From the NCBI RefSeq assembly GCF_000003815.2, contig NC_049990.1, positions 18,855,248-18,919,247 on the forward strand: 64,000 nucleotides of DNA. Reading direction: 5' to 3'. Under the pieces are notes generated by a model. That model did not search any database, was not told the origin of the DNA, and worked only from the letters and a program-made list of their open reading frames with translations. This document shows positions 1 to 52,100 of this stretch, one piece after another. This stretch comes from Branchiostoma floridae (Eukaryota; Chordata; Leptocardii; Amphioxiformes; Branchiostomatidae). Position 1 is the first letter of the stretch; every line of letters begins with the position of its first letter. A program made the position numbers and the translations under genes.

Positions 1-850
1 GGGCACGATGTTCAATATTTCCCATATCTGGAAATATCATGAGTCAGGAATTGTCTTGTTATGTATCCGGACAAATAAGACTTTCCTGCTTTTCAAGATA
101 CGCGCCATTGACGTTTCTTGCCTCCGAATACGTGATATGGTCTACATTCTTTACATATCCAAGGTCCATACATTTCGATAAGGAATACCCGGACAAATTA
201 GGAGTTTGCACGAAGCATGATGTGCATTATTTCTGGGCCATTGTCAGATGACATTTTCAATTCATTATGTGTCAGAATATCATGAGTCATGAAGTGTTTC
301 AGCACATGCCCGGACGGATAGAATTTCCCGTTCTTCCGAATACGTGTCAGGGACGTTTCATGTTTTCGAATTCATACTATTTTCTTTTCTTTCCATTTAC
401 GAGACATATCCGCGACAGATATTCCATGGATTAGTTTTAGGACAGATTCGAAGTTAGCATATTCTGACCGTTGCCGATAAAGGCATTCTATACGTGAATT
501 GTGAATCGGTGATTGTTTTATTGCGCATCTGAACAAATAAGACTGCATTTTTTTTGCCGAAATTTTCGCTCCTTCCGAATTCATATTCCGTTCCATTTAC
601 GACAGATGTCCAAAACAGAAACATTCCAGAGATCAGTTTTCGGACAACATAATGGTTAACAAATTACTTTTCTTGTCATACATGAATCTGAGATTGTTTT
701 GTTGGGTATCCTTAAAAAGGTTTCCTATCTTGTCAAATACACGTCATTAACGTTTTTGCTTCTGTATATGTGTTTTTATTCTACAACGAGTATGCCCGAT
801 GTCAATGTATGTTTACTCTGTAATTTTCTGGTAATTGAAGCTTAGGCTTC
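1..850. repeat. Diverged TCCGG-motif repeat block
   Basis: No convincing gene. Short phrases recur in degenerate form: a TATCCGGACAA-like core, 'atcatgagtca', 'gacgtttcttgcctccgaatacgtg' and 'cattcatgtt'-type stretches spaced roughly 100-250 bases apart. The TCCGGACAA core is the same as in the regular 72-bp minisatellite just downstream and in the repeats near 3.4-3.7 kb and 7.76-7.83 kb, so this looks like an old decayed part of the same repeat field. The short open frames here have no domain signal. Confidence 0.5.
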
Positions 851-960
851 CATATACATGTGCAAATATACTGACATCGACATTTACAATCAAATGACAC
901 AGAAAGCAATCTTTGCGATGGTAACAATTATGAGTCAAGTATTATTGTTTCTTTGCATAT

Positions 961-1475
961 CTGGACAATATCTTGAACAAAGTTCAGTCAAAATACTCCA
1001 CCCCAGCGGTGCAGTTTGGGATAGGTCCATATCCGGACAATGTCATGAATAAAGTTCAGTCAAAACACTCCACCCCAGCGGTGCAGTTTGGGATAGGTCC
1101 ATATCCGGACAATATCTTGAACAAAGTTCAGTCAAAACACTCCACCCCAGCGGTGCAGTTTGGGATAGGTCCATATCCGGACAATATCATGAACAAAGTT
1201 CAGTCAAAACACTCCACACCAGCGGTGCAGTTTGGGATAGGTCCATATCCGGACAATATCTTGAAAAAGTTCAGTCAAAACACTCCACACCAGCGGTGCA
1301 GTTTGGGATAGGTCCATATCCGGACAATATCTTGAAAAAGTTCAGTCAAAACACTCCACACCAGCGGTGCAGTTTGGGATAGGTCCATATCCGGACAATA
1401 TCATGACAAAAAGTCACTCATGATATTGAATTCCAGCGTTGCTGTGTGGGAATGTTCCATATCCGGACAATATCA
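961..1475 (+). repeat. 72-bp minisatellite, seven copies
   Basis: The core tccgg recurs at 1032, 1104, 1176, 1248, 1319, 1390 and 1462, so the period is 72, 72, 72, 71, 71 and 72 bases. Each unit contains 'cagcggtgcagtttggg' and 'tccatatccggacaat'. Copies 1-6 are nearly identical and the last is diverged. Because 72 is a multiple of three, a 112-codon open frame with a 24-residue repeat runs through copies 1-4. It breaks where the unit loses one base, so I read it as a by-product of the minisatellite rather than a protein. Confidence 0.9.
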
Positions 1476-2570
1476 CGAGGCAACTTTACTCGTAAAGCGG
1501 TTATGCAAGCTGTGCAAAGTGCCGAGCAGACCAGTACGTTGGCATGTCAACGGTGCGCCTACTGGGGCAGTCGTTGCAGATAACAGCCTACACCGCGCCA
1601 CAGCGTTTGCTGCTGTGTACAACTTTGAAACTGGTAAGTACATGATGCATTTATTCACAAAAATAATGCACAATGCCATGTGTTTCTGTGAAACAGGCAA
1701 GATGGATGACACTAACTTGCTTGGAACCATCTGGAGGAGTCCTTAGGTAACAAGACTATATTAGGAAGTCACATGACTTGACTAGACCAATAGTAGACCA
1801 GCTGGTGACAGCAGTTAGGTTTGAAACTAGATTTGAATCTCAGTTGCCGCTGCCGCTAGCCGCTACCGGACCAAAAAGTGAGTAGTGTAGCTCTCTAATA
1901 CATAGATTGTATATACATAGCAGTTACCGTTCTTAGTTCCGTATATGTCTGTCAGCAATGTCTGTTATCCCTTCCTAGGCCTAGTGTTTTGTGTATTTAG
2001 TAATTAGTAGTGTGATCTCTTTGTAAAGATTGTTGTATGATAGATCACTTCTCTTTCAGTTGGAACCCCCGCGTGTCATCCCCGGCTTGTTTACAAATTG
2101 CCCGTTCCATAGTTAGTTAAATTCTCATATTATTTTGTGCTGTATGTGCCGTGACGGCTGCTTCTAAACTTTCCTGTCCTGTTGTTCTGGCTGGCTAAAT
2201 CTTTAATAGAACCAAGGAGAAACTGTAATCTCCTCACTAGGACCAATGTGATTGTGTGCATATAAAATTCCATTCGTTCTCTGGGGGTCCTTATCTGTGC
2301 CATCTGTGTGGCCCGCACCCTTTGATGATAGCCGACTCCAGATTCCTGCCTTTGTCCCCGTCTTGCCCTGCTGTGATTTTTATGGCCGTGTTGTTTGAAA
2401 TAATTTTACATGTACCGTTCATGGGTTCGGGGCAGTTACTAGCCGTTTTTTTCCATTCCAGCCGCTGAGCCTCTGTTTCCCAATCGTCTGTCCTGCCATG
2501 CCGACGACCGAGGCCTACCTCCTGGTAACACTTACGACAGTCTGTGACCGGTGCCGTTTAATCCTGCCAG
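1476..2570. other. No assigned gene; possible upstream exons of the ShKT gene
   Basis: No recognised domain. Two splice-like contexts are visible on the plus strand: an open stretch ending at a good donor (ACTG/gtaagt, about 1634), and a strong acceptor with a T-rich tract (tttttttccattccag, ending about 2462) followed by about 60 bases and a possible donor CTG/gtaaca. Either could be an upstream exon of the ShKT-domain gene at 2571, but I could not join them in a frame that gives a recognisable domain. Confidence 0.25.
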
Positions 2571-2789
2571 AACTGTTTCTACTCTGAAGACGGACAGTGC
2601 CTGGACTATGCAATGGAACGGACTTTCCTCGAGACGTGCCGTCGATATTGCGGGGTCTTGCCAGAGCATCTTCCGTCGCCAATGATCGTCCACTACCACG
2701 AAGACGCAGAAGAGGGCGCCCCGGACGATGATTCCACAGTCAACACGATACGGACTTATAGAGGACTTGAAAATGGACTGTCGTACTGA
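2571..2789 (+). CDS. Terminal exon with C-terminal ShKT-like domain (partial gene)
   Basis: An open frame of 72 codons starts directly after an acceptor-like 'aatcctgccag' and ends at TGA. It begins NCFYSEDGQC and continues through a CRRYCG motif, matching the second half of a ShKT (ShK/astacin C-terminal six-cysteine) domain: Cys-x7-Cys-x12-Cys-x3-Cys. The first cysteine would be in an upstream exon, and the usual last cysteine after the CG is absent. The remaining about 45 residues are acidic and unstructured-looking. ShKT domains in invertebrates usually sit at the ends of secreted enzymes or matrix proteins. The rest of the gene is not identified, so no function is assigned. Confidence 0.5.
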   Translation, partial: NCFYSEDGQCLDYAMERTFLETCRRYCGVLPEHLPSPMIVHYHEDAEEGAPDDDSTVNTIRTYRGLENGLSY

Positions 2790-3330
2790 TTTCGTAATGA
2801 CATTTTTATCCTACGAATATTGATTGTATGGTTTATAACGTTAGACTTGTGTCGGATACTGTACATTTGATATTGTACATTTAAACTGACCAGTTTTGTT
2901 ATGATGTTATTGACTTGGGCTTGATATTATTGGATCTGACAGTGAACTGTTTAACTTTGGCTTCATTCGAGCTTCACTTTTTGTGAAGACCAATGAGGTT
3001 GTAGTGAGCTAAAACTTCCTTGGTAAGACTAAGAGACAAATACATATTGATTTGCCCCTTGACGTTAACATGATCTGTTCCTCCACATAATGTATTTGTT
3101 GTGATACTTGTGTCATCTGATTTATACAGGAAAGTCTTTGAAAAGCTTTCACAAAATGTAGCCTTACCGAGTTAGCATTTTCGGGGTTAAAACGGACAGG
3201 AAACGTTAAATATTAGGTATTTAGCATGATCGTAAAGTTACTGGATATTCTGAAATAATGTGTTGTATTGTTCCTATGATGTTTCAGTATATCTTAAGTT
3301 TATGCAACCTTTCCGGGGCGTAATAGCCCC
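2790..3330. other. No feature recognised (possible 3' UTR)
   Basis: AT-rich sequence after the ShKT stop codon. No open frame, obvious repeat or clear polyadenylation hexamer was recognised. The first part could be the 3' UTR of the ShKT exon. Confidence 0.3.
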
Positions 3331-3339
3331 GAACGCGCT

Positions 3340-3715
3340 CAGAAAATATGAAATGTTCGGAACGTGTTTTGTCTCCAAAGAGTCCTAGAACGTTCCATTA
3401 CTTGAAATCCGGATATGCGACATGATTATATGGTCCCATTCTTGACTCCTGAAATTATCCGGATTAATACGAAATATTCGGAACGTGAATTGTATCCAAA
3501 GAGTCCGAACACGTTCCATTACTGGAAATCCGGATATGAGACGTAATTATTTGGTCCCGTTCCGGACTTCTGAAATTGTCCGGATTTATACGAAATATTC
3601 GGAACGTGGTTTGTCTCCAAAGAGTCCGAAAACGTTCCATTACTGGAAATCCGGATATGAGGCAGGAATTAAATGGTCCCGTTCCGGACTCCTGAAATTT
3701 TCCGAAAACGCAGGG
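3340..3715 (+). repeat. 121-bp tandem repeat, three copies
   Basis: The phrase 'cgttccatta' recurs at 3391, 3512 and 3633, and 'ttcggaacgtg' shortly before each, giving a 121-base period. The unit carries 'aaatccggatatg' and 'tggtcccgttc', so it shares the TCCGG motif of the 72-bp minisatellite. The same phrases (gtccggatat, cggtcccgatccgg) reappear at 7764-7830 on the far side of the foldback element, which suggests that the element inserted into this repeat field. Confidence 0.8.
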
Positions 3716-3725
3716 GAGTCATGTC

Positions 3726-3733
3726 AGATTTCG
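3726..3733 (+). repeat. Left 8-bp direct repeat (putative target-site duplication)
   Basis: The octamer AGATTTCG lies immediately outside the left inverted-repeat terminus and recurs at 7754-7761 immediately outside the right terminus. This is the layout expected of a target-site duplication made on insertion of the 4-kb element. Confidence 0.7.
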
Positions 3734-3870
3734 AGACCTGATTATTTATCACATTTATTTAGCACTGAAAAGTATATAAAATAAATGTCGTGATAACTGA
3801 AAAAGATGTGATAAAGGATTTAGGTTTTTATATCACATTAATTCACCAAATAAGTGTTACTACAATCTTC

Positions 3871-5150
3871 TTCTGGAGAATAAATGTGATAGCAACCCCT
3901 TTATCACATTTATTCTCCATAGAGAGAACCAGGATTCTTCTTCTGGAGAATAAATGTGATAGCAACCCCTTTATCACATTTATTCTCCATAGAGAGAACC
4001 AGGATTCTTCTTCTGGAGAATAAATGTGATAGCAACCCCTTTATCACATTTATTCTCCATAGAGAGAACCAGGATTCTTCTTCTGGAGAATAAATGTGAT
4101 AGCAACCCCTTTATCACATTTATTCTCCATAGAGAGAACCAGGATTCTTCTTCTGGAGAATAAATGTGATAGCAACCCCTTTATCACATTTATTCTCCAT
4201 AGAGAGAACCAGGATTCTTCTTCTGGAGAATAAATGTGATAGCAACCCCTTTATCACATTTATTCTCCATAGAGACAACCAGGATTCTTCTTCTGGAGAA
4301 TAAATGTGATAGCAACCCCTTTATCACATTTATTCTCCATAGAGAGAACCAGGATTCTTCTTCTGGAGAATAAATGTGATAGCAACCCCTTTATCACATT
4401 TATTCTCCATAGAGAGAACCAGGATTCTTCTTCTGGAGAATAAATGTGATAGCAACCCCTTTATCACATTTATTCTCCATAGAGAGAACCAGGATTCTTC
4501 TTCTGGAGAATAAATGTGATAGCAACCCCTTTATCACATTTATTCTCCATAGAGAGAACCAGGATTCTTCTTCTGGAGAATAAATGTGATAGCAACCCCT
4601 TTATCACATTTATTCTCCATAGAGAGATCCTGAATTCTCCTTCTGGAGAATAAATGTGATAGCAACCCCTTTATCACATTTATTCTCCATAGAGAGAACC
4701 AGAATTCTTCTTCTGGAGAATGAATGTGATAGCAACCCCTTTATCACATTTATTCTCCATAGAGAGAACCAGAATTCTTCTTCTGGAGGATAAATGTGAT
4801 AGCAACCCCTTTATCACATTTATTCTCCATAGAGAGAACCAGAATTCTTCTTCTGGAGAATAAATGTGATAGCAACCCCTTTATCACATTTATTCTCCAA
4901 AGAGAGAACCAGAATTCTCCTTCTGGAGAATAAATGTGATAGCAACCCCTTTATCACATTTATTCTCCAAAGAGAGAACCCTAATCCTTCTTCTGGAGAA
5001 TAAATGTGATAGTAACCCCTTTATCACATTTATTCTCCATAGAGAGATCCTGAATCCTTCTTCTGGAGAATAAATATGATAGCAACCCTCTTATCACATT
5101 AATTCTCCAAAGACAGAACCAGGATCCTTCTTCTGGAGAATAAATGTGAT
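3871..5150 (+). repeat. Left array of 70-bp hairpin units (about 19 copies)
   Basis: The phrase 'ttctggagaa' recurs every 70 bases from 3871. Inside each unit ggagaataaatgtgata and its exact complement tatcacatttattctcc form a 17-bp stem around a 10-base loop (gcaacccctt), so every unit can fold into a hairpin. The outer copies are almost identical. The last six to eight towards the centre vary more (for example agagatcctgaattc, aatatgat), as expected if homogenisation is weaker at one edge. Confidence 0.9.
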
Positions 5151-5212
5151 AAAGGCCTCTTCGTATCAGTTTGCGGTTAACGTCACTAGCTCGCAGCATG
5201 CAATCGTTTCCG

Positions 5213-6555
5213 GTTTTCGTCGTTGTGCGACGTCTCGATTCGTGATTTGCGCAAATTCCGTTCCGATTTAGAGTCCATTTAAAAAATCAAAGATAAAGAC
5301 GGTTAGATCTCACCATTAACATCATTAACAACGTATGAGCTATGTATCACTTTAAGTCAGGCGTATTGCCTTCGTTAACTAGTGGCATAGTTATGAATGT
5401 CACTGCAAATCGTACTGTTGAGTAGCGCGTGTGAACTAATACAAGTATACCAATAGAAAGTGCATACCGTACTCGCCGAGGTAACCTTGTCAGGATGTTG
5501 CGGAAAGCACGTACGGAGACCAAGGTACGGACACAATGACATGTGTAGTCTTTGCCAGTTAGTGGCAAACACTTATCACATTAATTCTTCAAAGAGAGAA
5601 CCAGGGTTCTTTCTGGAGAATTAATGTGCTAGTCCTGTGTTTCAGGTACAGTACTGCGCAAACCATAACTACATCTCGTCAGGTCTTAAACATCTCTGGA
5701 ATAACAGTCCCGTGTTTCTGTTGAATTTTTGAACACATCATGGATACAGCTCGTCTTGTTGTACACGTTTCTGGAACAACGACTTGCATATCTTGTCAAC
5801 TTCTGCGTACCAACATGTATCGGTATTTTTCTCAGATTTTACCACAAAAAATGATAGGAAAATGCCTATTTACTTCAATTGTTTGAAACGCTCTGGAAGA
5901 CGACTGGTGACAAAGTGCCGTCTGTGAAACGGTGAAACTTCTGAATTCACCTTCCCACGTTTCACGTTCGCTTCCTCTCGCTGTGCATCGTCAGCAAATA
6001 AAATTTCCTTTCAGTTAGAATCTGAAGTTAACTGTGTTCCGACTCTATCGGGTATGTAAATTACCAAAATCTCCGTGGCCTACCCATCTGGATCCAATTC
6101 CATGGATCTGTGGGCCTGATGAGTTCGATGTCTGGATTCCGGGGTCGGTTCAGCTTGGCTAGGTTCGGACATGTTGTAAGAAGTGATTGCTTTCGTCTTT
6201 CGGAAGGGACGTAAGACGGGGTCCCAACCTAAAACAACTACCTTGTCCCTACCTGGCCTGACGAACTCTAAGAGTTCTCTATGACAAAGTCAGATGGCTT
6301 TCCATGCCGATTTATGTTTTTGTTCCATCCCGCGGAGTTGGGGGAGTACCCCGTGACGTCTTTTCCGGTCTCATGTTCGCAAAATAGGGGCGCTTCGTCT
6401 GGACAAACCTCAGCTCTGGAGAAAACTTATACAGTTTCCCCCAAATCAAGGACGTTATATAACCAACAGAAGTGTATGTACGTAACATTCATAAAGTTTC
6501 TCCCCAAATCAAGGACAATATATTACACCCAAATGTAACGTGTGTGGTGTTTAAT
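5213..6555. other. Core of the foldback element, no gene found
   Basis: This is unique sequence between the two inverted arms. Short open frames exist on both strands but none has a domain or codon pattern I recognise. It holds one degenerate 70-bp-type unit at about 5573-5635. It may be the remnant of a coding region or captured host DNA. Confidence 0.5.
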
Positions 6556-6617
6556 TCCGGAAACGATTGCATGCTGCGAGCTAGTGACGTTAACCCCATA
6601 CTGATACGAACAGGCCT

Positions 6618-7625
6618 TTATCACATTTATTCTCCAGAAGGAGAATTCTGGTTCTGTCTTTGGAGAATAAATGTGATAAAGGGGTTGCTATCACATTTAT
6701 TCTCCAGAAGAAGAATTCTGGTTCTCTCTTTGGAGAATAAATGTGATAAGAGGGTTGCTATCACATTTATTCTCCAGAAGAAGAATTCTGGTTCTCTCTT
6801 TGGAGAATAAATGTGATAAGAGGGTTGCTATCACATTTATTCTCCAGAAGAAGAATTCTGGTTCTCTCTTTGGAGAATAAATGTGATAAAGGGGTTGCTA
6901 TCACATTTATTCTCCAGAAGAAGAATTCTGGTTCTCTCTATGGAGAATAAATGTGATAAGAGGGTTGCTATCACATTTATTCTCCAGAAGAAGAATTCTG
7001 GTTCTCTCTTTGGAGAATAAATGTGATAAGAGGGTTGCTATCACATTTATTCTCCAGAAGAAGAATTCTGGTTCTCTCTTTGGAGAATAAATGTGATAAA
7101 GGGGTTGCTATCACATTTATTCTCCAGAAGAAGAATCTTGGTTCTCTCTATGGAGAATAAATGTGATAAAGGGGTTGCTATCACATTTATTCTCCAGAAG
7201 AAAGTTTCAGGATCTCTCTATGGAGAATAAATGTGATAAAGGGGTTGCTATCACATTTATTCTCAAGAAGAAGAATCTTGTTTCTCTCTATGGAGAATAA
7301 ATGTGATAAAGGGGCTGCTATCACATTTATTCTCCAGAAGAAAGTTTCAGGATCTCTATATGGAGAATAAATGTGATAAAGGGGTTGCTATCACATTTAT
7401 TCTCCAGAAGAAGAATCCTGGTTCTCTCTATGGAGAATAAATGTGATAAAGGGGTTGCTATCACATTTATTCTCCAGAAGAAGAATCTTGGTTCTCTCTA
7501 TGGAGAATAAATGTGATAAAGGGGTTGCTATCACATTTATTCTCCAGAAGAAAGTTTCAGGATCTCTCTATGGAGAATAAATGTGATAAAGGGGTTGCTA
7601 TCACATTTATTCTCCAGAAGAAGAA
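6618..7625 (-). repeat. Right array of 70-bp hairpin units (about 14 copies)
   Basis: The phrase 'tggagaataaatgtgata' recurs every 70 bases from 6661 to 7571. It is the same unit as the left array but in the opposite orientation, with loop variants aaggggttgc and agagggttgc and spacer variants (aagaattctgg, aaagtttcagg). The number of units and the variants differ from the left arm, so the two arms have expanded independently. Confidence 0.9.
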
Positions 7626-7753
7626 TGAAAATCCTTGTTGGCGAAAAAATGAGACAAAGGTTTTACTCATCACTATCACATATTTTGTAATTATCAAGCT
7701 TTTCATGAGAAATACTTTTTTGAGCTAAAAGAATGAGATAAATAGCTAACTCT

Positions 7754-7761
7754 AGATTTCG
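7754..7761 (+). repeat. Right 8-bp direct repeat (putative target-site duplication)
   Basis: AGATTTCG, identical to the octamer at 3726-3733, sits immediately outside the right inverted-repeat terminus. It is followed by TCCGG-type repeat sequence like that to the left of the element. Confidence 0.7.
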
Positions 7762-7971
7762 TCCGGATATTGTCCGGATATATCCAGAAACGGTCCCGAT
7801 CCGGATGTATACAAACATAGAAATGTCCGGAAATGACACCCTTTCGCACAGTGACAGGACTACAATGTGTGAAATGTCATTGTGTTGACTGTTTAAAGAT
7901 GGACTCCGTTGTTTTATCCCTACGTTCAACATAACGCTGTGGTTTTGATAATACTTTGACGATTTCAGTAC

Positions 7972-8112
7972 TGACCACATGGCGTTAGACACCATGGTAC
8001 AGAAGAGCAGAGACAAGCAGCACGTGACTCGCTGAACTCGGGTGAAGTTACTTCTGGTCGGACGGGAGAACACAGAGAACCACAGGTGGCCGTCACTGAA
8101 GTCCTTCTTCAC
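7972..8112 (-). CDS. PKD1-like: PKD1-like exon 50: TM2 segment, last exon found
   Basis: Starts in phase 0 with KKDFSDGHLWFSVFSRP and RSNFTRVQRVTC, then the hydrophobic CLSLLFCTMVSN and AMW: the conserved PLAT-to-TM2 segment of polycystin-1 proteins. The 3' border is uncertain. Donors after ...MWS (7972) or 17 bases later (7955, AA/gtatta) are both possible. If not spliced, the frame stays open for about 95 codons into repeat DNA and gives no domain. No further TM, polycystin cation channel or coiled-coil exons were recognised at lower coordinates. Confidence 0.85.
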
Positions 8113-11100
8113 CTGTCACAGCAATTCAAAAAGAAACATTAAAAATTATAAGCAATTTTGAATATGTCAGCACCCATTTGATATTTCCCATATCTGTTTA
8201 TCATATAAAATTCCAGGTAGTGCTGTACACTAGTAAATTTTGTTATGAATCCTGTCATCATCATCCATTCGTCTTCTTCATATTGCTAATTTTTCTGTCA
8301 TAAAGAATGTTCAATAAATTATACAGAGTCCGGAAACGACATAGAGGTAGCATTTGTACACTTGCTTAATAGGTTCTTTCATACTTTTGAGTACGCGTGC
8401 GACGCCGTCTGAATTGAGGGTAATATGTCAAAGTTGATCACGAGGGCTCATGACTTGTTAAAAGTTCCCAATGTGTGCTCAGGTGTGATTTGTTTACATT
8501 GTATGTCTCCAGGGCCTTCATCTTTGACATATTGCCCACGCTTCCTGTCGCCACGCATACGTGCTAGAAAATACGAACTGGCTCATACGTAGAGCCTCGT
8601 GGATGATAGTACGTCAAGAAAAGTCAAAACTAATCTCCAACTTACGGTGGAGAGAAAGAGTTGGTCAAACTGCACCATTTCCTTCTCAGTTGCCACCGGC
8701 AGTGTTCGTTTGATCTGTCCGTCTCCGAGATTCACAGCCAGCCAATCATCGCAGATGAAGTAGGACCTGTAGCAGTTATGAGATTGTACATAAATCGTAT
8801 GTATCGTGTAGTACTGTATAATATTAAGAGCTATTTTCCTTCATTGGAATGATAATACTCACGCAATCGAAATTTTGCCAATGTTAGTGGTTAAAGCGGT
8901 ATCTCACTGGACTGCAGTCTGTTGGCGAAGTTGCTGCGTCCGGAGCTTTGAATGTGTGTTACCCTTGACTTTATAATGAGAATGTCACTAACGTACAGAT
9001 ATGACTTGTAAGGCAACAAAGCACAAAAAACATGCGCTTTTATTGATGAAATACGTTAAGCGTCCAAATCGCTCTTTGACGATGACGTACTGCAGCTTTA
9101 GGATACTAAAGAAGTATACGTTCCATGTTTAATGCGGCAACTAAACAAACATAATTTCATAAAGTCTACCTTTCATTTGTTTGCAGATCTCGCACGTGTA
9201 CTCTGTTCAGGTACCAGGATCCGTCCATGTTCTCCTCCCCGTTGTCGTGCCAGATCTGTAGTGACATCAGGCCACCCAAATCCCTCATCTCACTCATCAG
9301 GAACTGGTTAACACTTCCCCGGCTGAACTCCTGCGACAATAATCCAAATAGATTCAAAAGAAATCGCCAAGCAGGTTATGGTGAGGTCACATTCGTCAAA
9401 AGCCATTGTACGACGTAAATGCCGGCGGATTTTCAAGCAGCCTGTGTCGATGTCAGAACCAATCGCCAACAAGGATATGAGACAGCATGTTTTCAACAAG
9501 ACGGCTGTTTTTTACCGATGCACGACTTCAATCATGTCAGCAACACAGTCGTAAGACTATCCCTCAATTTGCGATCTTAGGAGGGTCGCACGACAACTGC
9601 GACCATACCATACGTAAGGCCGTTTGTAACCAAAACTAAAAGGTGATAGAATACGTTACTATTTTGTCTTTCAACACTTGCTTGGAATTGATTAAAGGGG
9701 CAAACACCGAACGTTTCAATGTTTTTTTTCTAAATCACATCTTTTATATGAAAATGCATGCAAATTATCAAAATACTTCCTTGATTTTATTACGTTGTCT
9801 ACAATGCAAATCAACAATGCCTGTTTAGAATTCAGCAAACAGTGGTCAAAATGTAAAGATATTACAATTCAAAGCAGATAATTTACCTTTCCTTTGCCAG
9901 CCAAACGTCGGGTCCGACTTTTGCCATTATCTCCGTGCAGAATGAAGAAGATATTGGACTTTGTGCCTGCACCCTTCCTCATGCCTGTGTACACCGTAAC
10001 CTCGTAGTGATAGGAGTCTATCAGCCGATTATCCGAGAGAGCTGTGACACTCCACTATAGACGGGAGAATTATACATGAAAAGAGTGAGTGCAGATCTCC
10101 AGAATTTTTTAGATAAAGATCAGTAGCATCTTGCAGATATAAAATGTATTCTACCTTTATCATCATGGAAAAGAAGGGTTTTCCCTATCTTCATTCTATC
10201 GGGTAGGAAAGACACCGACTGATAATCTGACTTACGTTTATTCTGAACTGTTTAATGAAGTTAGGCGGAGTACTACAATGTTGCTGGTGGTGACTTAAGC
10301 TGTCTAAGGCTATAATGTGTGTGCTTGATGATGAGAACTTTGGTGGAGTTTATCAATGCCTGATGATAAGAAAGTAGTGCGGACACTATCAATTTCTATT
10401 CTTATTTGGTATATTATCTACCTATCTACTATTCCATCTAGGTGCTCAGTTAAGAATATACTGTCTTGTTAGTAGCGGATATTAATGACTGATGGTAAGG
10501 AGTTATAGTGCGGAAACCATCACTTTCTATTTTAAGTATGTAATTTATACGTAGCAATAGGTTCTTCACCTTGAGAACGTCCTTTTGATCAGCCCTTCTG
10601 GCCAGGAGTGCCATACCCAGGTAGATGACGACCAGCGCTATGATGGTACACAGGACATACGGGTTCTCCCCGATGTTTTTGTTGAAGACGGTGCGGAAGT
10701 CGATCATGTTCGGTGGAGTGAACAGCTCCGCTCCGAATGACGTCAGATGGGTGCAGAGGCATATTGTAGCCCGGGACGTGGAGTACTCAGAGACCTGCAA
10801 TACAATTATAACGGATACAATGTTTCTTTGACTTCAGCATTATCGTATATGATGAGCAAGATTGTTATTAGTAAGTGTCTTATTGTTTTCTCTGAATGTT
10901 TCCGTACTCCACTAGGGCTGTGACTACAGTATGACCGAGCGATTTGATCCAGAGCTCAATTCATCGAATTTGACAAAAATTGGTAGACTTTGCATGTTTT
11001 GTTGTCTTTGCAGTCAAAGAACAAAAAATATAAAATAAAATTGGTATCTATGGAATTCCTTAAGTGATCTGTGGTTGATCATAGAAGTTTCTGACATTTT

Positions 11101-43100: not shown

Positions 43101-46100
43101 CATCATTTAGAAACATACTGAAACATGTTCATGGCATGTGTACAGATTTAGGATGTAGTAGAAAATCTCATTTAACACACATGTAAACAGATGAGTGAAT
43201 GTAAAGAAAGGACGAAACTCCAGCTAGTTTTTTTATATTTGCCATAACTAATGCTCGAATAGATACGGCAAGTTTTAAACCTGGGGACTTACCATACAAT
43301 TCCAATGCCTCTGATGGCTGGAGTACCTTCTCGGTGAAGAAGAAATTGTCCAGCAGCAGCTTTCCACTGTTGCAAGCACCATCATCCCGTCCCCTTGTCC
43401 CGATGTGCAGCATAGTGTCGTTGTATCCAACGCTATTTACAGGTCTCCAAATCTGTGTCACTGGGACATTACTCGGTACACCATTCACGAACACTTTCAA
43501 CTCGTTAAGCCAGGAAAATTGAATGCTTGACCAGACACTATTGGCCAGTTGGACTGTGGTTGATTGTTCATGAGTGTCGTTTGATTGAACAGAGATTGTA
43601 TACCGATTATGCAAAGCCTCGTAAGCTATAAAAAAGCCTGGCGTCTCTCCTTCACCACCATTTGAGAGAAGGGTAAGTGTTTCATTGACGTTGGAGATTC
43701 TATAAGTTTTCACCCAAATACTGACAGTAAACCCGAACACACAGTATATCGGACTGCCTAAGCACTGTCCTGGAAATGGTCCAGCAAAAAGGCTATTCTC
43801 CCTATCAACTACAAGAGCATAGCCGACCAGGCCATGTTCTAATATCATGCGGTTGATTGGCTGGAGAAAGACTGCTTCTTGGTTGTCAGCAATACTGCCA
43901 CTGTATGTGAGGTCCATTGAAAAGTTGTACTGCCTGACTGACGCCCCAATAGCTGGAGAAAACAAGAAGGAAATGTCAATAATGGGAACATTCACAAATA
44001 CACAAGTACAACCAGGCAAAAACAGCGATGGAATCAAACGTGACCGTGGTAAAATTAACTGCCTTTCGTCAGTAACTCTGACTTAGTGGGTTCTACAAGA
44101 AACGTCCAACCGTTTCGAATACCATGTCCAGTAGCTTGAGTAACTGCCATCTAGCAGATCTTATTATCTGGATGTCTAAGCTTCACCAAAGTACGTAGAC
44201 ATAATCTCAGACTGATAGACAAGAGAACATTCATGACATCATTTGAGCAAAACAGTATGTGTTTAGCGGAAAATGTGGCAGCTATAACTTGTCGATTAGT
44301 GAGCAACCGAAAGTAGAACCGGTTATGGAATTATATCTTATAAAAAAGAATCCCAAATAACATACCGTAAAGAATCTTTATTTCCTCCGTAGTTAGCTGT
44401 CTGTCATTGAAGCGGATCTCGTCAATGGTGAACTGTGATTGACTCTCTCCGTCCAATGTTTTCCCGAGGACCAGTTCCGAGAAACACTCGGAACTGTTTC
44501 CTGTGGCTTCAGCCACCCCAGATGTCGCTAAAAGAGAAAAAAATACTTTATAAGAAGCTTATTTTACCTAATGATTTGTGTAGGTAATAATCGGTACAGG
44601 TATCAATGTTCTGAAGCAAATATATGTAATACTGTGGCTATGCATCAGTAAATGCCATATTTTGTACCTTGTACAATTTTTACGCCATAAAGTTACATGT
44701 ATGTAATCTTAGACACAATTTGGGATTAATCCTTAGTCAAACGCTTCACAAAAGACACACGGTCTTTTGTAAACTGATGTTTTAAGATACTATAGATTTC
44801 GTAATGCACAAAATTAACAGTTGGTATGTCTACTAGAATCTTCAGACCGTCCCTTCTTTCCCTTTAGTTAAAGTGATGGAGACCCATTGGATACATACAA
44901 TTGCGCTTGATGCCGTTGATGAAAGTCGCTAGGTCTCCTACTTGGCTCCAAGAGAAGGCGAGATGCGTCCATTGTTCTGGGTGTACTTCTAACAATGACT
45001 TCCACATGTTGCCGTCAGCCCTGATAAAAAACTCTGCCGTTGTCTGGCTGTCGGCCTAAAGGAGCGGAATCAAACTTAAAAATCAACCTATCATTTAGGT
45101 TTTGAACAATTGACTTTGTAATGGGTTACGATTTCTTGGTGATACATATTTCATCTAGACACTAGAGTTCCACGACCTCATGACTTCATCATATAATATC
45201 AACCATAACGACTGATTCAAGTATTGAATTCCCACTATTTTTTTAGTATGGCATAATACAATTTTATCATCATTCAAATTAGGTCTACATTTGCTAAATT
45301 GGTGACATATTTCTGACAAATAACACTGTTTGCTAGTTAATTAATTAATTGTCACTAGTGACATTTGTGGCTAGCCGAGCAGCAAGATTTTTGAGGACTT
45401 GTTTGTTTATGGAGTTGAGGACAGTAGTGCGGAGTAATAGTAGATATGTGACAAAACTATGGGTTTTACGCCATTTTCGTCATTGTTTTATGCAATGCAA
45501 TGCATATGAGAGAAACCCATTTGTTACTATGGTGAGTAGATCATTTGCAAACACTAAAAAAATGACAGTGGAGCAAAGCAGTTGCCCTGGGGTACACCAA
45601 ACTGTTTACGCATACTGCCTGTTTCCAAGGTAACTACTATTCGCTTACTAGCTGGTGGTTAGAAACCATTATAGCTTTCTAGTTTGGATGAACAGATGTC
45701 ATGGTTAATGATATCAAAAGCTTCACTAACTAAAGATAACAGCCATCACGGCGCCAGCCAAATCTCCTTTGTCTATCTCCTCCAACTATTTGTCTCACAT
45801 TTGCATGAGTGCACTTACTGGATGGTGTGTGTGTCTTTTTTGCAGAAGGGAACAAGTAACTTAACCGGTTCATCAAGATCCCCCAAGTTATTTTGTCACC
45901 TGTCGACTCTACTTTTACAGATTTAGGTCATTGGTCGACCTAAGATAAGTATTGACCACTCACATTGATTTTCTAAGGGGTTACGACAGAGCACGTCTAC
46001 ACAACTCAGACACAGGTAAATTATGTTTTTAATCCTTCTTCTGCCTAACCATGTAACCAATACAAAAGCGTTGCCAAATGGCACTTCACTAGCTGCAGGA

Positions 46101-49100
46101 AGAATTCCAGGCATACCTTTATGCTTGTTTCAAGGCCCCGCCTGGTTCATGTGAAGCCATTAGGGCAGTCTTTAGTATGTGATCATATCAAGTGATCTGT
46201 TTTGCCTTAACTACGATTCACGCAAAAATGCCCATACTACTGAGTCCAATCCAACCACCAAAACAACGGTGCTCTTCTGGAAAGTGGGTAGAATGGGGTA
46301 CAGTATGGTTTTATACAGCTGGCCCCACACCAGTAGTATACTAGTACCAAACTAGAAGTTATTTCGGAATATTCCTTACTCGTTGGTTACCCACTCCAAA
46401 AAAATTACCATAAAGTCGACTGATTAGACTTCATTCTCCAATATGTAAGTTTGATAAAGGAGGTTAGAATTGGGTTTGATTATTATTCTACATGTTTGTC
46501 TGCTGCCTGAGGGGCGACCATGTTTGTATCGCAATCACTAAACTAGTTAGTCCACATTTTTGGTGACGCCCCAGGGACGAAGCCTGTCCGAGGCAAACTA
46601 CATGTACTAGTATACAAACTCACCGATGCATTTCGAAAGAGTGTAGAGAAATGTGTTTTTTTTTGGGGGGGGGGCAGAATATTTGAGTATCCTTCAAGCT
46701 CTGTTTCTTGCAACCTGAGCAAATACCAGCTTTGCTCATATCATTATGCAAATCTATATCTGTTTTCTTGTCGTAAATGTATCCTACCAAAGCAGCCAAA
46801 TGACAGAATAGTAGGTTAACGTTTATAGTTGACTCTAGGTCGGACATAGCATTGCTACAACCGCATACAGATTGGGTAGATATATTCAAGCTATGCCTGT
46901 CATTTCTGATCCCCCACTACAATTATGAATTAGCTTGGAAATTTAGAATAACTTTATCATAATTTCCAATCAGGTTTTGAAGTTTTCCAAGCGACGCCTA
47001 CCACTCCTACAACTATGCCGGACATGAAACGGTCGCTGACAATTGATGAGGTGCCAGACGTGCACAAGGAGCCGTATGTTCTTACGGGATACAGGCCCCC
47101 GCAGCAGCCATGGCGTTTTTACCTGATGAGTATCTTCTCCCAGCACAACGAAACCGTGAACGTCTGGACCCACCTTCTGCCATGTTTCTACGTGCTGTGG
47201 CTGCTGAAGACATACTCTGGTGAGAACTATACAAAATATTTTACATTATTTTGCTGTGAATTTAGAAGATCTATACTTCGAGAAACTGAGAATCAGAAAG
47301 TAATCACTGTCAAATGTAGGGAACAGAAACGTGTATACAGCTTATTCTGTCATTATAAGCTAGTGGAAAGTCTATTTTTTATGTATTGAATGTTTAGGAA
47401 CAAGCTTATAATGATCTTGAGGTGAACACAATAGAAATGATCTTTATGCTTTGGTGCATGGGGAAGACAATAAGGCTCCAGCAAAACGTGGCCACATTGT
47501 TCATGAGGATGTCTTTATTTGGAGTGGCTAGTCCACATTTGACTGTACTTTAAAACAGTATACGTATACCGTTCCAGAAATAAACAGGGGATATTGTGTG
47601 CAATTTGTGTTTACGTGGGCAATGATACACACAATACCGTTTTTTGTTGTTATGTTTCAGACGAGGTAAGCTTCGCAAGTGACGTATCTTCAACGCTTCT
47701 GCTTCTCTTCGGCACCAGCGTCTTCACTTCACAGTTCCTGAGCGCATGCGCCCATCTCCTACACTCTCGCTCTGTAGCTGCGTATTACGTCACCTTTATC
47801 TTTGACTATCTGGGAATCGCCTACCACTCATACACCAGCGGGACCGTGCAATACTTCCTCAGCAGCGAAGCTTCGTTTTTCCACGCCGTGCATCCGTGGT
47901 ATCCGTGGGCATGTGTGTTATTCAGTTGTTGCTACTTTGCTGTCAATGCGTACTCACACGTTAGGTACCGGAGATGTCATTCGGAAAGAGCTATGATTCA
48001 AGTTGTCTCCTTCGGTATGACGTATCTGTGGACAGTTTCACCAGTGATACACCGCATTTACTCTGATGTCTACAACGGAACAGCGGACGACGTCACATTG
48101 ATGCATGTCAACCATATCCTCCTGGTCGCCATAGCAGGCTTCTTCCACGGGTCAGGGGTGCCACAGAAGTTTTTCCCTGGAATGTGTGACGTCATTGGTC
48201 ACGGCCATCAGATATTTCACGTAGCAAGTTCAACATCAATAACACTCCAGCTAAAAGCATCGTTCGCAGATCTGCAGAACCGCCGCCATCTTGATTTGGC
48301 TCGAATTCGTCCTACCGACATGTCAATCACAGCTTACCTTGTTGTGTTATTTACTTCATATGGTTACATCACTGTCATATTTGTGCGCAAAGCTTTGTCA
48401 AAGGCAAATTATAGTTAATATATATATATATTTATTTGTGGATTACTATAGATTGGTATCTTGTTTGTCTTTTGGAGGGATGTTTTGTTGTTTTGTCTTA
48501 TTGTCCACTAATGTAGTCAACGTCTGATTGTGGCAAAAAAAAAAACGGCAAATGCGGTCAAATGAGATTTCAGTGCGCATTTATCTATTTGATTATCCTA
48601 TCACAAAACTTTTAAGTATACCTATTTCCGATACCATTAAAGGCATTTATATTTTACGGTGTACTTTTCCGTGGTTGCATATATGCAATTTTATTTTATT
48701 CCTACTAATTTTGTTATGCAATTGGATTTTATTATTTCATTAGTTGTTTAGTTAGTCCGTTTGTCTTTTTCTTAATCATTCATTTTTGTTTATTCTATGA
48801 ACTTAATTGAAGTGTTATAATTTGGCAAAGGGAGGTCCCTATTCAAGCACGAGCGGCAGGCCTCTCTGGCACTTTTATATTACATCTAAATTTCTTCGTT
48901 ATATATTTATTATGTCTTAAGTGCAGAAGATAAAACAGAAAAGTAAACAAACATTAATAAGATACATATACTCAGTGTCAAAAATGATTAAACTTGCCTA
49001 TAACAATCAGAACAAGGTTCTATGGACAGTATTTTTTTCAAACTTGTACCTAAATGAACGCTACTATCATCATTGGATATGCTAAAAATGTGATCCTTTG

Positions 49101-52100
49101 ACGCTTTGATTGAAATCATTTAGATCATTTGGAAAAATGAAAAATAATACTAGACCAAAGCAGCTGCCCTGGGTACACAGTACTTGGTTTCTCTGTTTAC
49201 AAATACTGCTGGTTTCCTGTTTCCAATCTGACTAATATTCTGTGAATAGCTGATGGTTTAATAGAAACCATAGTTTTGTAGTTTGGCTCAACAGATGCCA
49301 TGGCTAATGATATCAAATGCTTCATCTAGCATATCGGCGCAAACCATTCCTTTTGTCTACCTCCGCAAAATAGTTGTCTGACATTTGTCTGAGTGCAGTT
49401 CCTGTGGAGTGCGAGTTTTTGGAAAAGGTATAATAATCAACTAAACCGGTTCATCAAGATTCCTCAAGTTATTTTGTCCACCCGGGTTTTGTAAAACGTT
49501 CATTGGTCGACCGATGATAATCATTGATCACACTGGCTATTCCGAGGAGTTACTACGACACAGCGCGTCTACACAACACGGTCACAGGTAAAGTAATATG
49601 TTTTAATCCTTCCTCTGCCTAACTATGTAACCAATACTAATGCGGTGTTAGGGAGAATTACAGGCATGGTCTTGTGCTTGTTTAAAAGCCGGGCGGGGGG
49701 GGGGGGGGGTCTCTTTCATGGGAAGCCATTAGGGCACTCATTAGTTTGTGATCATATCAAGTGATCTGTTTTGCCTTCACTACGATCCACACAAAAAGTA
49801 CCAATACTTCTTAGTCCGATCCGATCCCCAAAACAAGAGACGTTCTGCCGAAGAGTGGGTAGAATGAAGTACAATGCGCGTTTATACATCAGGCACCAAA
49901 CCAGGAGTTATTTAGGAATATTCCTTATTCGTAGGTTATCCTCTCCAAGGAAATTATCATTACGACGATTGATCGGGACTTTATTCTGCAATATGGAAGT
50001 TTGATAAAGTTGGTTAGAGTTTGGCTTGATTATTATTTTACTTGTTTGTCTGCTGCCTGAGGGGCGACCATGTTTGTATCGCAATCACTAAACTAGTTAG
50101 TCCACATTTTTGGTGACGCCCCAGTGACGAAGCCTGTCCGAGGCAAAATACTAGTATACAAACCAACCGATGCATTGCGAAAGAGTGTAGAGAAATGTTC
50201 TTTGTTGTATTAGAGTAGAGTATTATTGAAGCTCTGTTTCTGGCAACCTTAGCAAAAACTAGTTTTGCTCGTATCATTATGCAAATCTATATCTGTTTTT
50301 TATCGTAGATATATCCTAAAAAAACAAATGACGGAAATCTAGTAGTGGGTTAACGTTTATTGTTGACTCTCGGTCGGACACAGCATTGCTACAATCGCAT
50401 ACAGATTGGGTAGATATATTCAAGCTATGCCTGTCATTTCTGATCCCCCACTACAATTATGCATCAGCTTGGAAATTTAGAATAACAATCATAATTTCCA
50501 ATCAGGTTTGAAGTTTTCCAAACGACGCCTACCACTCTTACAACTATGTCTGGCATGAAACGGTCGATGACAATTGATGAGGTGCCAGACGTCCACAAGG
50601 AGCCGTATGTTCTTACGGGATACAGGCACCCGCAGCAGTCATGGCGTTTTTACCTGATGAGTATCTTCTCCCAGCACAACGAAACCATGAACGTCTGGAC
50701 TCATCTTATCCCATGTTTCTACGTGCTGTGGCTGCTAAAGACATACTCTGGTAAGAACTATACAAAATATTTTACATTATTTTGCTGTGAATTTAGATCT
50801 ATACTCTGCGATACTGAGAATCGGAAAGTAGTCACTATAAAACGTAGGGTACAGAAACGTGTATACAGCTTATTCTGTCATTATAAGCTAGTGGAAAGTC
50901 TATTCTTTATGTATTGAATGTTTGGAAACAAGCTTATAATGAACTTAATTGAGGTGAACACAATAGAAATGATCTTTATACTTTGGTGCATGGGGAAGAC
51001 AATAAGGGTCCAGCAAAACGTGGCCACATTGTTCATGAGGATGTCTTTATTTGGAGTGGCTAGTCCACATTTGACTGTACTTTAAAACAGTATACGTATA
51101 CCGTTCCAGAAATAAACAGGGGATATTGTGTGCAATTTGTGTTTACGTGGGCAATGATACACACAATACCGTTTTTTGTTGTTATGTTTCAGACGAGGTA
51201 AGCTTCGCAAGTGACGTATCTTCAACGCTTCTGCTTCTCTTCGGCACCAGCGTCTTCACTTCACAGTTCCTGAGCGCATGCGCCCATCTCCTACACTCTC
51301 GCTCTGTAGCTGCGTATTACGTCACCTTTATCTTTGACTATCTAGGAATCGCCTACCACTCATACACCAGCGGGACCGTGCAATACTTCCTCAGCAGCGA
51401 AGTTTCGTTTTTCCACGCCGTGCATCCGTGGTATCCGTGGGCATGTGTGTTATTCAGTTGTTGCTACTTTGCTGTCAATGCGTACTCACACGTTAGGTAC
51501 CGGAGATGCCATTCGGAAAGAGCTATGATTCAAGTTGTCTCCTTCGGTATGACGTATCTGTGGACAGTTTCACCAGTGATACACCGCATTTACTCTGATG
51601 TCTACAACGGAACAGCGGATGACGTCACATGGATGCATGTCAACCATATCCTCCTGGTCGCCATAGCAGGCTTCTTCCACGGGTCAGGGGTGCCACAGAA
51701 GTTTTTCCCTGGAATGTGTGACGTCATTGGTCACGGCCATCAGATATTTCACGTAGCAAGTTCAACATCAATAACACTCCAGCTAAAAGCATCGTTCGCA
51801 GATCTGCAGAACCGCCGCCATCTTGATTTGGCTCGAATTCGTCCTACCGACATGTCAATCACAGCTTACCTTGTTGTGTTATTTACTTCATATGGTTACA
51901 TCACTGTCATATTTGTGCGCAAAGCTTTGTCAAAGGCAAATTATAGTTAATATATGTATATATTTTCATTTGTGGATTAATATAGATTGGCATCTTGTTT
52001 GTCTTTTGGGGGGGGGGGTGTTTTGTTGTTTTGTCTTATTGTCCATTAATGTAGTCAACGTCTGATTGTGGCAAAAAAACAACAACGGCAAATGCGGTCA

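What the first reader, a model, noticed from the sequence alone, without database searches (positions are those of the whole stretch)
3734..7753. A complete foldback-type element with hairpin-forming tandem repeats as inverted termini
The sequence shows two inverted arrays of a 70-bp unit (about 19 and 14 copies). Inner arms continue the inversion, outer ends match as inverted repeats, and AGATTTCG is exactly duplicated at both borders. Each 70-bp unit is itself a 17-bp-stem hairpin, so the structure is self-complementary at two scales. Tandem arrays as terminal inverted repeats are known for foldback elements. That this is a mobile element and that 8 bp is its target-site duplication is inference.
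Basis: partly seen in the sequence, partly recalled or inferred. Interest (0 to 1): 0.8.

Follow-up and report, generated by a model that had tools for sequence, protein, structure and literature searches.

The report
Foldback transposon with hairpin-array ends
A piece of jumping DNA in an animal genome, probably a lancelet, has two long mirror-image ends built from dozens of copies of a small DNA hairpin; relatives at other places carry the same ends, and a few of them appear to be very large or to carry a host-type gene.

Summary
Window 3734-7753 is a 4,020-bp foldback element: unlike outer ends, inverted arrays of a 70-bp hairpin (18 and 14 full units), 62-bp inner arms, and a centre whose ten longest frames match no protein family. 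In the window's own genome (513 Mb, 431 contigs) the ends recur. Of 22 end pairs examined, 16 have an exact, abutting 8-bp direct repeat, all different. The window flanks joined with one AGATTTCG match 40 of 40 scored copies of a dispersed host repeat at 98-100% (nine at 100%), so the empty site exists. In four copies with a complete centre the centres differ by 0.6-1.2%, yet arrays range from 7 to 21 units. Half-sites (TATCACATTWATT/AATWAATGTGATA) lie at +13, +67 and +97 in both ends and form each unit's stem, which varies far less than loop and spacer; arrays of transposase-binding sites are the likely reading. One 9.2-kb relative holds C-type-lectin reading frames, and three end pairs 24.9-34.9 kb apart have perfect 8-bp repeats. 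The transposase was not found. A new foldback family; its palindromic unit and possible giant relatives make it a variant.

The parts
3726..3733 (+). left target-site duplication AGATTTCG
   Evidence: one copy at paralogous empty sites
3734..3865 (+). left outer end (tip AGACCTGATTATTTATCACATT)
3747..3759 (-). half-site TATCACATTTATT, offset +13, exact match to the array motif
3801..3813 (+). half-site AAAAGATGTGATA, offset +67
3831..3843 (-). half-site TATCACATTAATT, offset +97
3866..5151 (+). left array, 18 full 70-bp hairpin units; of the outermost 10, nine are identical and one has a single change
5152..5213 (+). left inner arm
   Evidence: 59 of 62 identical to the right inner arm
5214..6556 (+). 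centre; no protein family above cut-off in its ten longest reading frames; 99% copies elsewhere in the genome
5573..5632 (+). isolated degenerate hairpin unit in the centre
6557..6618 (-). right inner arm
6619..7626 (-). right array, 14 full 70-bp hairpin units
7644..7656 (+). right-end half-site, offset +97
7674..7686 (-). right-end half-site, offset +67
7728..7740 (+). right-end half-site, offset +13
7627..7753 (-). right outer end (tip AGAGTTAGCTATTTATCTCATT, read inwards)
7754..7761 (+). right target-site duplication AGATTTCG
3345..3704 (+). host: 121-bp tandem repeats of the dispersed repeat family into which the element inserted

Best explanation
It is a non-autonomous cut-and-paste-type DNA transposon of the foldback kind that inserted, recently, into a copy of another dispersed repeat and duplicated 8 bp of target. 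Shown: the tips, the 8-bp duplication, the empty site, other copies with the same tips, and low divergence between copies. Inferred: a transposase supplied in trans makes cuts staggered by 8 bp and recognises the tip plus inverted half-sites (TATCACATTWATT / AATWAATGTGATA) at about +13, +67 and +97. Each 70-bp unit is a close inverted pair of these half-sites, so the arrays multiply binding sites, as shown experimentally for repeats of Galileo. Array length changes quickly by unequal exchange or slippage, probably helped by the hairpins, and the two arms exchange sequence by gene conversion.
For: 16 of 22 end pairs examined have an exact abutting 8-bp direct repeat, all 16 different. The joined window flanks with one AGATTTCG match 40 of 40 scored places (of 73 candidates) at 98-100% over query 1-225 or more; nine are 100% identical across the junction, and some of the others have small length differences. 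Four copies with a complete centre differ there by 0.60-1.19% but have 18/14, 10/13, 11/21 and 8/7 units, left/right, counted with at most 4 mismatches per half. Left ends match the window's left end and right ends its right end at 96-100% in the window's subfamily, while left and right are 69% alike. Half-sites at +13(-), +67(+) and +97(-) lie at the same offset and strand in both ends: 3 shared against at most 1 in 5,000 shuffles. In the 32 full window units stems carry 5 variant cells of 1,088 and loops plus spacers 71 of 1,152. Over 258 units in 15 loci one of 17 stem positions has switched A-T to T-A on both sides in 64 units. The innermost units of both arms share diagnostic changes; mean differences are 4.1 between arms, 4.9 within the right arm and 2.9 within the left.
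Against: No transposase was found: of 27 MULE-domain and 12 KDZ-domain matches in the genome, those on a contig with a listed end lie 529 kb or more from it, and the P-superfamily and hAT searches did not complete. Binding by a transposase is inferred. Six of the 22 end pairs lack a clean abutting 8-bp repeat: three match at 7 of 8 (one of them in poly-T, uninformative), one has an 8-bp repeat displaced by 3 bp, one has none, one lacks its left tip. Of 11 loci fetched for the unit, 5 lack one or both ends. Gene conversion between arms rests on shared variants only, and the left arm is more uniform than the comparison between arms. The shuffle for shared offsets destroys the homology of the two ends, so it shows conservation of the arrangement, not independent origin.
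Confidence: 0.93

Rival explanations
1. The hairpin units are not binding sites but a by-product: palindromic units extrude cruciforms or snap back during replication, which makes them expand; only the outer ends matter for movement.
For: Units fold with z -7.2 to -8.2; one stem position shows the same change on both sides in 64 of 258 units; arrays vary from 7 to 21 units between copies with about 99% alike centres. Copies with one or two units in all also have clean duplications (C274 268 bp, L015 392 bp, L012 463 bp).
Against: The half-site sits at fixed offsets in both outer ends, which themselves do not fold better than shuffles. In the units, each position of the ATGTGATA part keeps its usual pair in 246-258 of 258 units, though the units were chosen by similarity.
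Confidence: 0.3
2. The mobilising enzyme is a Mutator-like (Phantom/Muta-type) transposase.
For: 8-bp duplications lie in the 8-11 bp range of MULEs (PMC6446971, passages); Muta1 of Aedes has 8 or 9 bp duplications and subterminal tandem repeats and is classed as a foldback element (PMC5225508, passages); 27 MULE-domain places exist in this genome.
Against: The nearest of those 27 places to a listed end is 529 kb away.
Confidence: 0.4
3. The enzyme is of the P/THAP superfamily (Galileo-like), hAT or KDZ/Zisupton.
For: Galileo has foldback-like ends, a THAP footprint at +63 to +80 and further sites in its tandem repeats (PMC3688188, sections 2.6 and 3); here a conserved half-site lies at +67. 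The 8-bp duplication of P is stated in PMC4168063 (passage); 8 bp for hAT and Zisupton is recalled.
Against: 12 KDZ matches, the nearest to a listed end 972 kb away; searches for P and hAT domains did not complete; the AGA tips are not those I recall for P or hAT.
Confidence: 0.35
4. Assembly or cloning artefact, or a local foldback duplication rather than an insertion.
For: Long inverted arrays are hard to assemble; several relatives contain or border runs of N.
Against: The arms differ by about 5% and the ends by 31%; the same structure with other flanks and its own 8-bp repeat recurs; the empty site exists.
Confidence: 0.01

Closest known systems
Tetris (foldback transposon, Drosophila virilis; PMC4079207, abstract and two sections seen)
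   Same: Long inverted ends with outer flanking domain, tandem-repeat domain and inner domain; middle without apparent coding capacity; 8-9 bp duplications in the three complete copies; repeat number varies; a short relative (DAIBAM).
   Different: Unit about 220 bp, three or four copies in the allele described, not described as a hairpin in the sections read; different host.
Galileo (P superfamily, Drosophila; PMC3688188 sections 2.6 and 3, PMC3573991 and PMC4168063 passages)
   Same: Foldback-like inverted ends with tandem repeats that carry extra transposase-binding sites; first site near +70; exchange between copies.
   Different: 7-bp duplications in most copies; repeats of about 140-210 bp in the passages read; transposase known; no sequence comparison was made here.
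Muta1 (MULE of Aedes aegypti; PMC5225508, passages)
   Same: 8 or 9 bp duplications, subterminal tandem repeats, classed as foldback type, many non-autonomous derivatives with variable centres.
   Different: 12-bp direct repeats, 145-bp ends, encodes its own transposase.
Tm1 (Mutator/foldback family of root-knot nematodes; PMC3169594, passages)
   Same: Composite inverted ends with variable numbers of a tandem motif; asymmetric tips; a gene lies in one member.
   Different: About 14-bp motif, 9-bp duplications; a Phantom-like transposase is known.

Membership tests
Foldback-type transposon (structural class) | Long inverted ends made of tandem repeats | tested here: met
Foldback-type transposon (structural class) | Multiple dispersed copies with coinciding tips | tested here: met
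Foldback-type transposon (structural class) | Target-site duplication of fixed length | tested here: met
   8 bp exact and abutting in 16 of 22 pairs; empty sites
Foldback-type transposon (structural class) | Observed mobility | not testable with these tools
   only indirect: 0.6-1.2% divergence between four copies
Mutator (MULE) superfamily | 8-11 bp duplication | tested here: met
   range from PMC6446971 (passage)
Mutator (MULE) superfamily | Related element encoding a MULE transposase | tested here: inconclusive
   27 MULE places, nearest 529 kb from a listed end; parts of some relatives read N
P superfamily (Galileo-like) | Related element encoding a THAP/P transposase | not tested
   search for PF21787 not answered
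P superfamily (Galileo-like) | Transposase footprint near +70 and in the repeats | not testable with these tools
   only an analogous half-site at +67
hAT superfamily | hAT transposase in a related element | not tested
   PF05699 not answered
KDZ/Zisupton | KDZ transposase in a related element | tested here: inconclusive
   12 matches, nearest 972 kb from a listed end

The most novel reading that the evidence does not exclude
One set of hairpin-array ends mobilises DNA from 0.27 kb to about 35 kb in a chordate: small deletion forms, 4-kb foldbacks, a 9.2-kb element carrying a C-type-lectin gene, and giant elements of 25-35 kb. The arrays would be what makes such long transposons mobile (many binding sites offsetting length), and the family would disperse host immune-type genes.
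Probability: 0.35. Interest if true: 0.75.

Novelty: new variant of a known kind. Interest (0 to 1): 0.5.

Why it matters
Why foldback transposons carry long repeated ends is unsettled; PMC3688188 says the functionality of such long repeats remains uncertain. Here one genome holds relatives with 1 or 2 units in all up to 21 in one arm, lengths from 0.27 kb to perhaps 35 kb and clean insertion sites, so binding-site number, element length and mobility can be compared directly. The palindromic unit makes binding-site multiplication and hairpin-driven expansion testable alternatives. A gene-carrying member and insertion into a near-identical repeat family also make it a clean case of recent genome change in what is probably a lancelet.

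Tried and rejected
Assembly artefact or local foldback duplication: rejected. Chance 8-bp match: rejected by 16 of 22 and by the empty sites. Coding capacity of the centre: the ten longest stop-to-stop frames (55-88 aa) of the 25 of at least 40 aa printed were scanned with Pfam; two weak matches below cut-off, E 0.15 and 0.071. Rfam at gathering scores: no match in the window. Exact unit core in viral and prokaryote collections: 0 and 0. Transposase by association: no MULE or KDZ match near listed ends. Frames in relatives: 10 of L020 (lectin and coiled-coil types) and 8 from L021, L022, L043, L044, L045 (one match, below cut-off); a 142-aa frame in the interior of L014 was not scanned. Right flank against the 121-bp unit by alignment: a 14-bp match, not above shuffles; the genome search settled it instead. 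The Phantom paper (doi 10.1534/genetics.110.116673) is not held. Papers: the rows listed by searches showed no title or abstract start describing this family; that is not proof that none exists, and Repbase was not available. Single ends listed without a partner were not followed.
Full report
WHAT IS THERE. Window 3734-7753 (4,020 bp) is bounded by AGATTTCG at 3726-3733 and 7754-7761, exactly 8 bp. Inside lie a left outer end (3734-3865), an array of 18 full 70-bp units (TRF: 3866-5151, 18.4 copies), a 62-bp inner arm (5152-5213), a centre (5214-6556), the inverted inner arm (6557-6618, 59 of 62 identical), an inverted array of 14 full units (6619-7626) and a right outer end (7627-7753). The two outer ends are homologous but only 69% alike (85 identical of 123 ungapped columns; alignment score 62, shuffle maximum 37 of 1,000). 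The arrays begin and end in the same register in both arms.

THE UNIT. Each unit is an inverted pair GGAGAATAAATGTGATA - 10 nt - TATCACATTTATTCTCC followed by a 26-nt spacer. Three 70-mers fold with z of -7.2 to -8.2, 0 of 200 shuffles as stable; the lone unit in the centre has z -4.0, and the outer ends are not special (z -1.5, +1.0). Among the 32 full window units the stems have 5 variant cells of 1,088 and loops plus spacers 71 of 1,152; 5 of 34 stem columns vary against 17 of 36 others (Fisher p = 0.0045). These units are related by duplication, so the p-value overstates independence. Over 258 units of 15 loci, chosen by at most 4 mismatches per half and 3 in the loop, one stem position is A-T in 158, T-A in 64 and unpaired in 36 units; the other 16 positions show no such switch.

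HALF-SITES IN THE ENDS. The 13-mer core with up to 3 mismatches occurs 4 times in the left end and 3 times in the right end (shuffle means 0.35 and 0.16; at least as many in 2 of 5,000 shuffles each). Three sites share offset and strand: +13(-), +67(+), +97(-). The rest of the 64-kb window has 50 such sites outside the element. Alignment of 13 left and 10 right ends shows conserved blocks over these sites across two subfamilies.

OTHER COPIES. The genome search was first answered: G000 has 513,431,437 bases in 431 contigs. The exact unit core occurs 135 times (reversed control 0). The left end gives 40 matches (40 of 76 candidates scored) and the right end 37 (36 of 36 candidates scored). Eleven loci were fetched around listed unit hits (L009-L019): 6 have both ends, 3 the left end only, 1 the right end only, 1 neither. 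With the window that makes 7 copies with both ends; all 7 have an exact 8-bp repeat. Fifteen further pairs were formed from the two listings and examined; 9 are exact: L020 (GCATACGG), C274 (268 bp, CAATCACT), C12:13509374-13512598, C1:23473762-23481155, C2:13254298-13255059, C13:18260223-18261415, and three pairs at C16:7301992-7336868 (34.9 kb, TATGTACT), C1:30531115-30563033 (31.9 kb, GGCTTGCA) and C1:2371678-2396601 (24.9 kb, ATTTTCAG). Coordinates are those of the matches; in the second subfamily the right tip lies up to 6 bases further out. The other 6 of the 15: 7 of 8 bases at C8 and at L021 (its second right end; its first right end gives none), 7 of 8 in poly-T at L022, an 8-bp repeat displaced by 3 bp at C12:19204595-19207036, none at C13:7896139-7900935, left tip missing at C9. 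Total: 16 of 22 exact and abutting, 16 different sequences.

EMPTY SITE. The window flanks joined with a single AGATTTCG (3601-3733 plus 7762-7860, 232 nt) match 40 of 40 scored places (73 candidates) over query positions 1 to 225 or more at 98-100%; the junction is at position 133. Nine of the 40 are 100% identical and therefore without any break; a few others differ by one to three bases in length. The element therefore entered one member of a high-copy repeat family whose tandem 121-bp repeats precede it.

AGE AND DYNAMICS. The centres of the window copy, L011, L013 and L019 differ by 0.60-1.19% (six pairs); L013 lacks a detected right end. Their arrays have 18/14, 10/13, 8/7 and 11/21 units, left/right. 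A fifth copy with a 99% alike centre, C13:7898394-7899875, was not fetched whole. If the animal is a lancelet, 0.6-1.2% is below the 3.2-4.2% heterozygosity given in the abstract of PMC12500494 (search listing), so movement was recent. The innermost unit has shared changes in both arms and the outermost ten left units are almost identical: old inverted arms, recent local amplification. The centre contains a stretch (about 5782-6000) that also matches 18 listed places at 80-85% where no other part of the query is listed.

CARGO AND GIANTS. L020 is a 9,230-bp element with the same ends and GCATACGG at both sides. Between its arms lie reading frames with a C-type lectin domain (E 3.7e-22) and coiled-coil-type matches. 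They resemble a large gene family mostly on contig C10: best 83% over the 423-base lectin part and up to 92% over the roughly 325-base coiled-coil part, short pieces up to 97% (40 of 459 candidates scored). No closer parent was listed, so capture is inferred. L020 also holds a 222-base run of N. The three 24.9-34.9 kb pairs were found by pairing ends and by their 8-bp repeats; I read only part of one of them, and much of that part read N. That each is one contiguous element is therefore inferred from the repeats.

HOST CONTEXT. Minus-strand frames give Laminin_G_3 at about 42 kb (a second at 44 kb below cut-off), PKD and REJ at 27-21 kb, REJ at 18 kb, a GPS match below cut-off at 10.5 kb, and two PLAT pieces at 10-9 kb, one just above and one below cut-off: a polycystin-1-like gene. 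The element lies beyond the PLAT pieces, in an intron or downstream. Four similar segments on the plus strand hold HlyIII/PAQR-type frames; three of the four frames were scanned and matched. Genome size and gene content suggest the lancelet Branchiostoma floridae; its assembly size is recalled, its 19 chromosomes come from a passage of PMC12373286, and contigs C1-C19 seen here reach about 10 Mb or more. The species is not proven.

HOW IT WORKS. Shown: insertion with 8-bp duplication, fixed tips, repeated and recent spread. Inferred: an enzyme in trans, binding of tip and half-sites, arrays as extra binding sites, growth by unequal exchange. The model for the arrays is Galileo, where the THAP domain protects +63 to +80 and binds sites in two of the tandem repeats (PMC3688188, sections 2.6 and 3). 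That copies with one or two units in all have clean duplications shows that long arrays are not indispensable.

COMPARISON. It works like Tetris, Galileo, Muta1 and Tm1 (sections or passages) and meets the tested features of the structural class. Superfamily membership is open: 8 bp fits MULE and P; the MULE and KDZ matches nearest to listed ends are 529 and 972 kb away; P and hAT were not tested. A repeated unit that is itself a palindrome of half-sites was not met in the passages read. I call it a new variant of a known kind; it may prove an ordinary new member.

Noticed in passing
L020 (G000:C4:30675400-30685300), 119-9348: 9.2-kb relative with the same ends and an 8-bp repeat holds C-type-lectin and coiled-coil-type reading frames that resemble a large host gene family.
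   Followed up: partly
G000:C16:7301992-7336868, C1:30531115-30563033, C1:2371678-2396601: Three end pairs 25-35 kb apart, each flanked by a perfect, different 8-bp repeat: possible giant elements.
   Followed up: partly
window 3345-3725 and 7762-7860: Flanks belong to a high-copy repeat family with 121-bp tandem repeats; 40 scored copies at 98-100%.
   Followed up: partly
window 956-1474: Seven copies of a 72-bp tandem repeat containing ATATCCGGACAATATC, a 16-mer also present inverted in the right flank (7766-7781).
   Followed up: no
window about 9169-44037, minus strand: Polycystin-1-like gene (LamG, PKD, REJ, weak GPS, PLAT).
   Followed up: partly
window about 45600-60400: Tandem HlyIII/PAQR-like copies in segments about 77-91% alike.
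   Followed up: no
window about 5782-6000: Part of the centre also matches 18 listed genome places at 80-85% where no other part of the query is listed: a repeat caught inside or shared.
   Followed up: no
L012 4124-4321; L021 with L042: L012's right end carries an internal tandem duplication; at C171 two right ends follow one left end, about 1 kb apart.
   Followed up: no
G000, e.g. C12:3268277, C4:9116976, C2:22753007: Places that match only the first 81-102 bases of the left end at 77-82%: an older or sister family sharing the tip.
   Followed up: no
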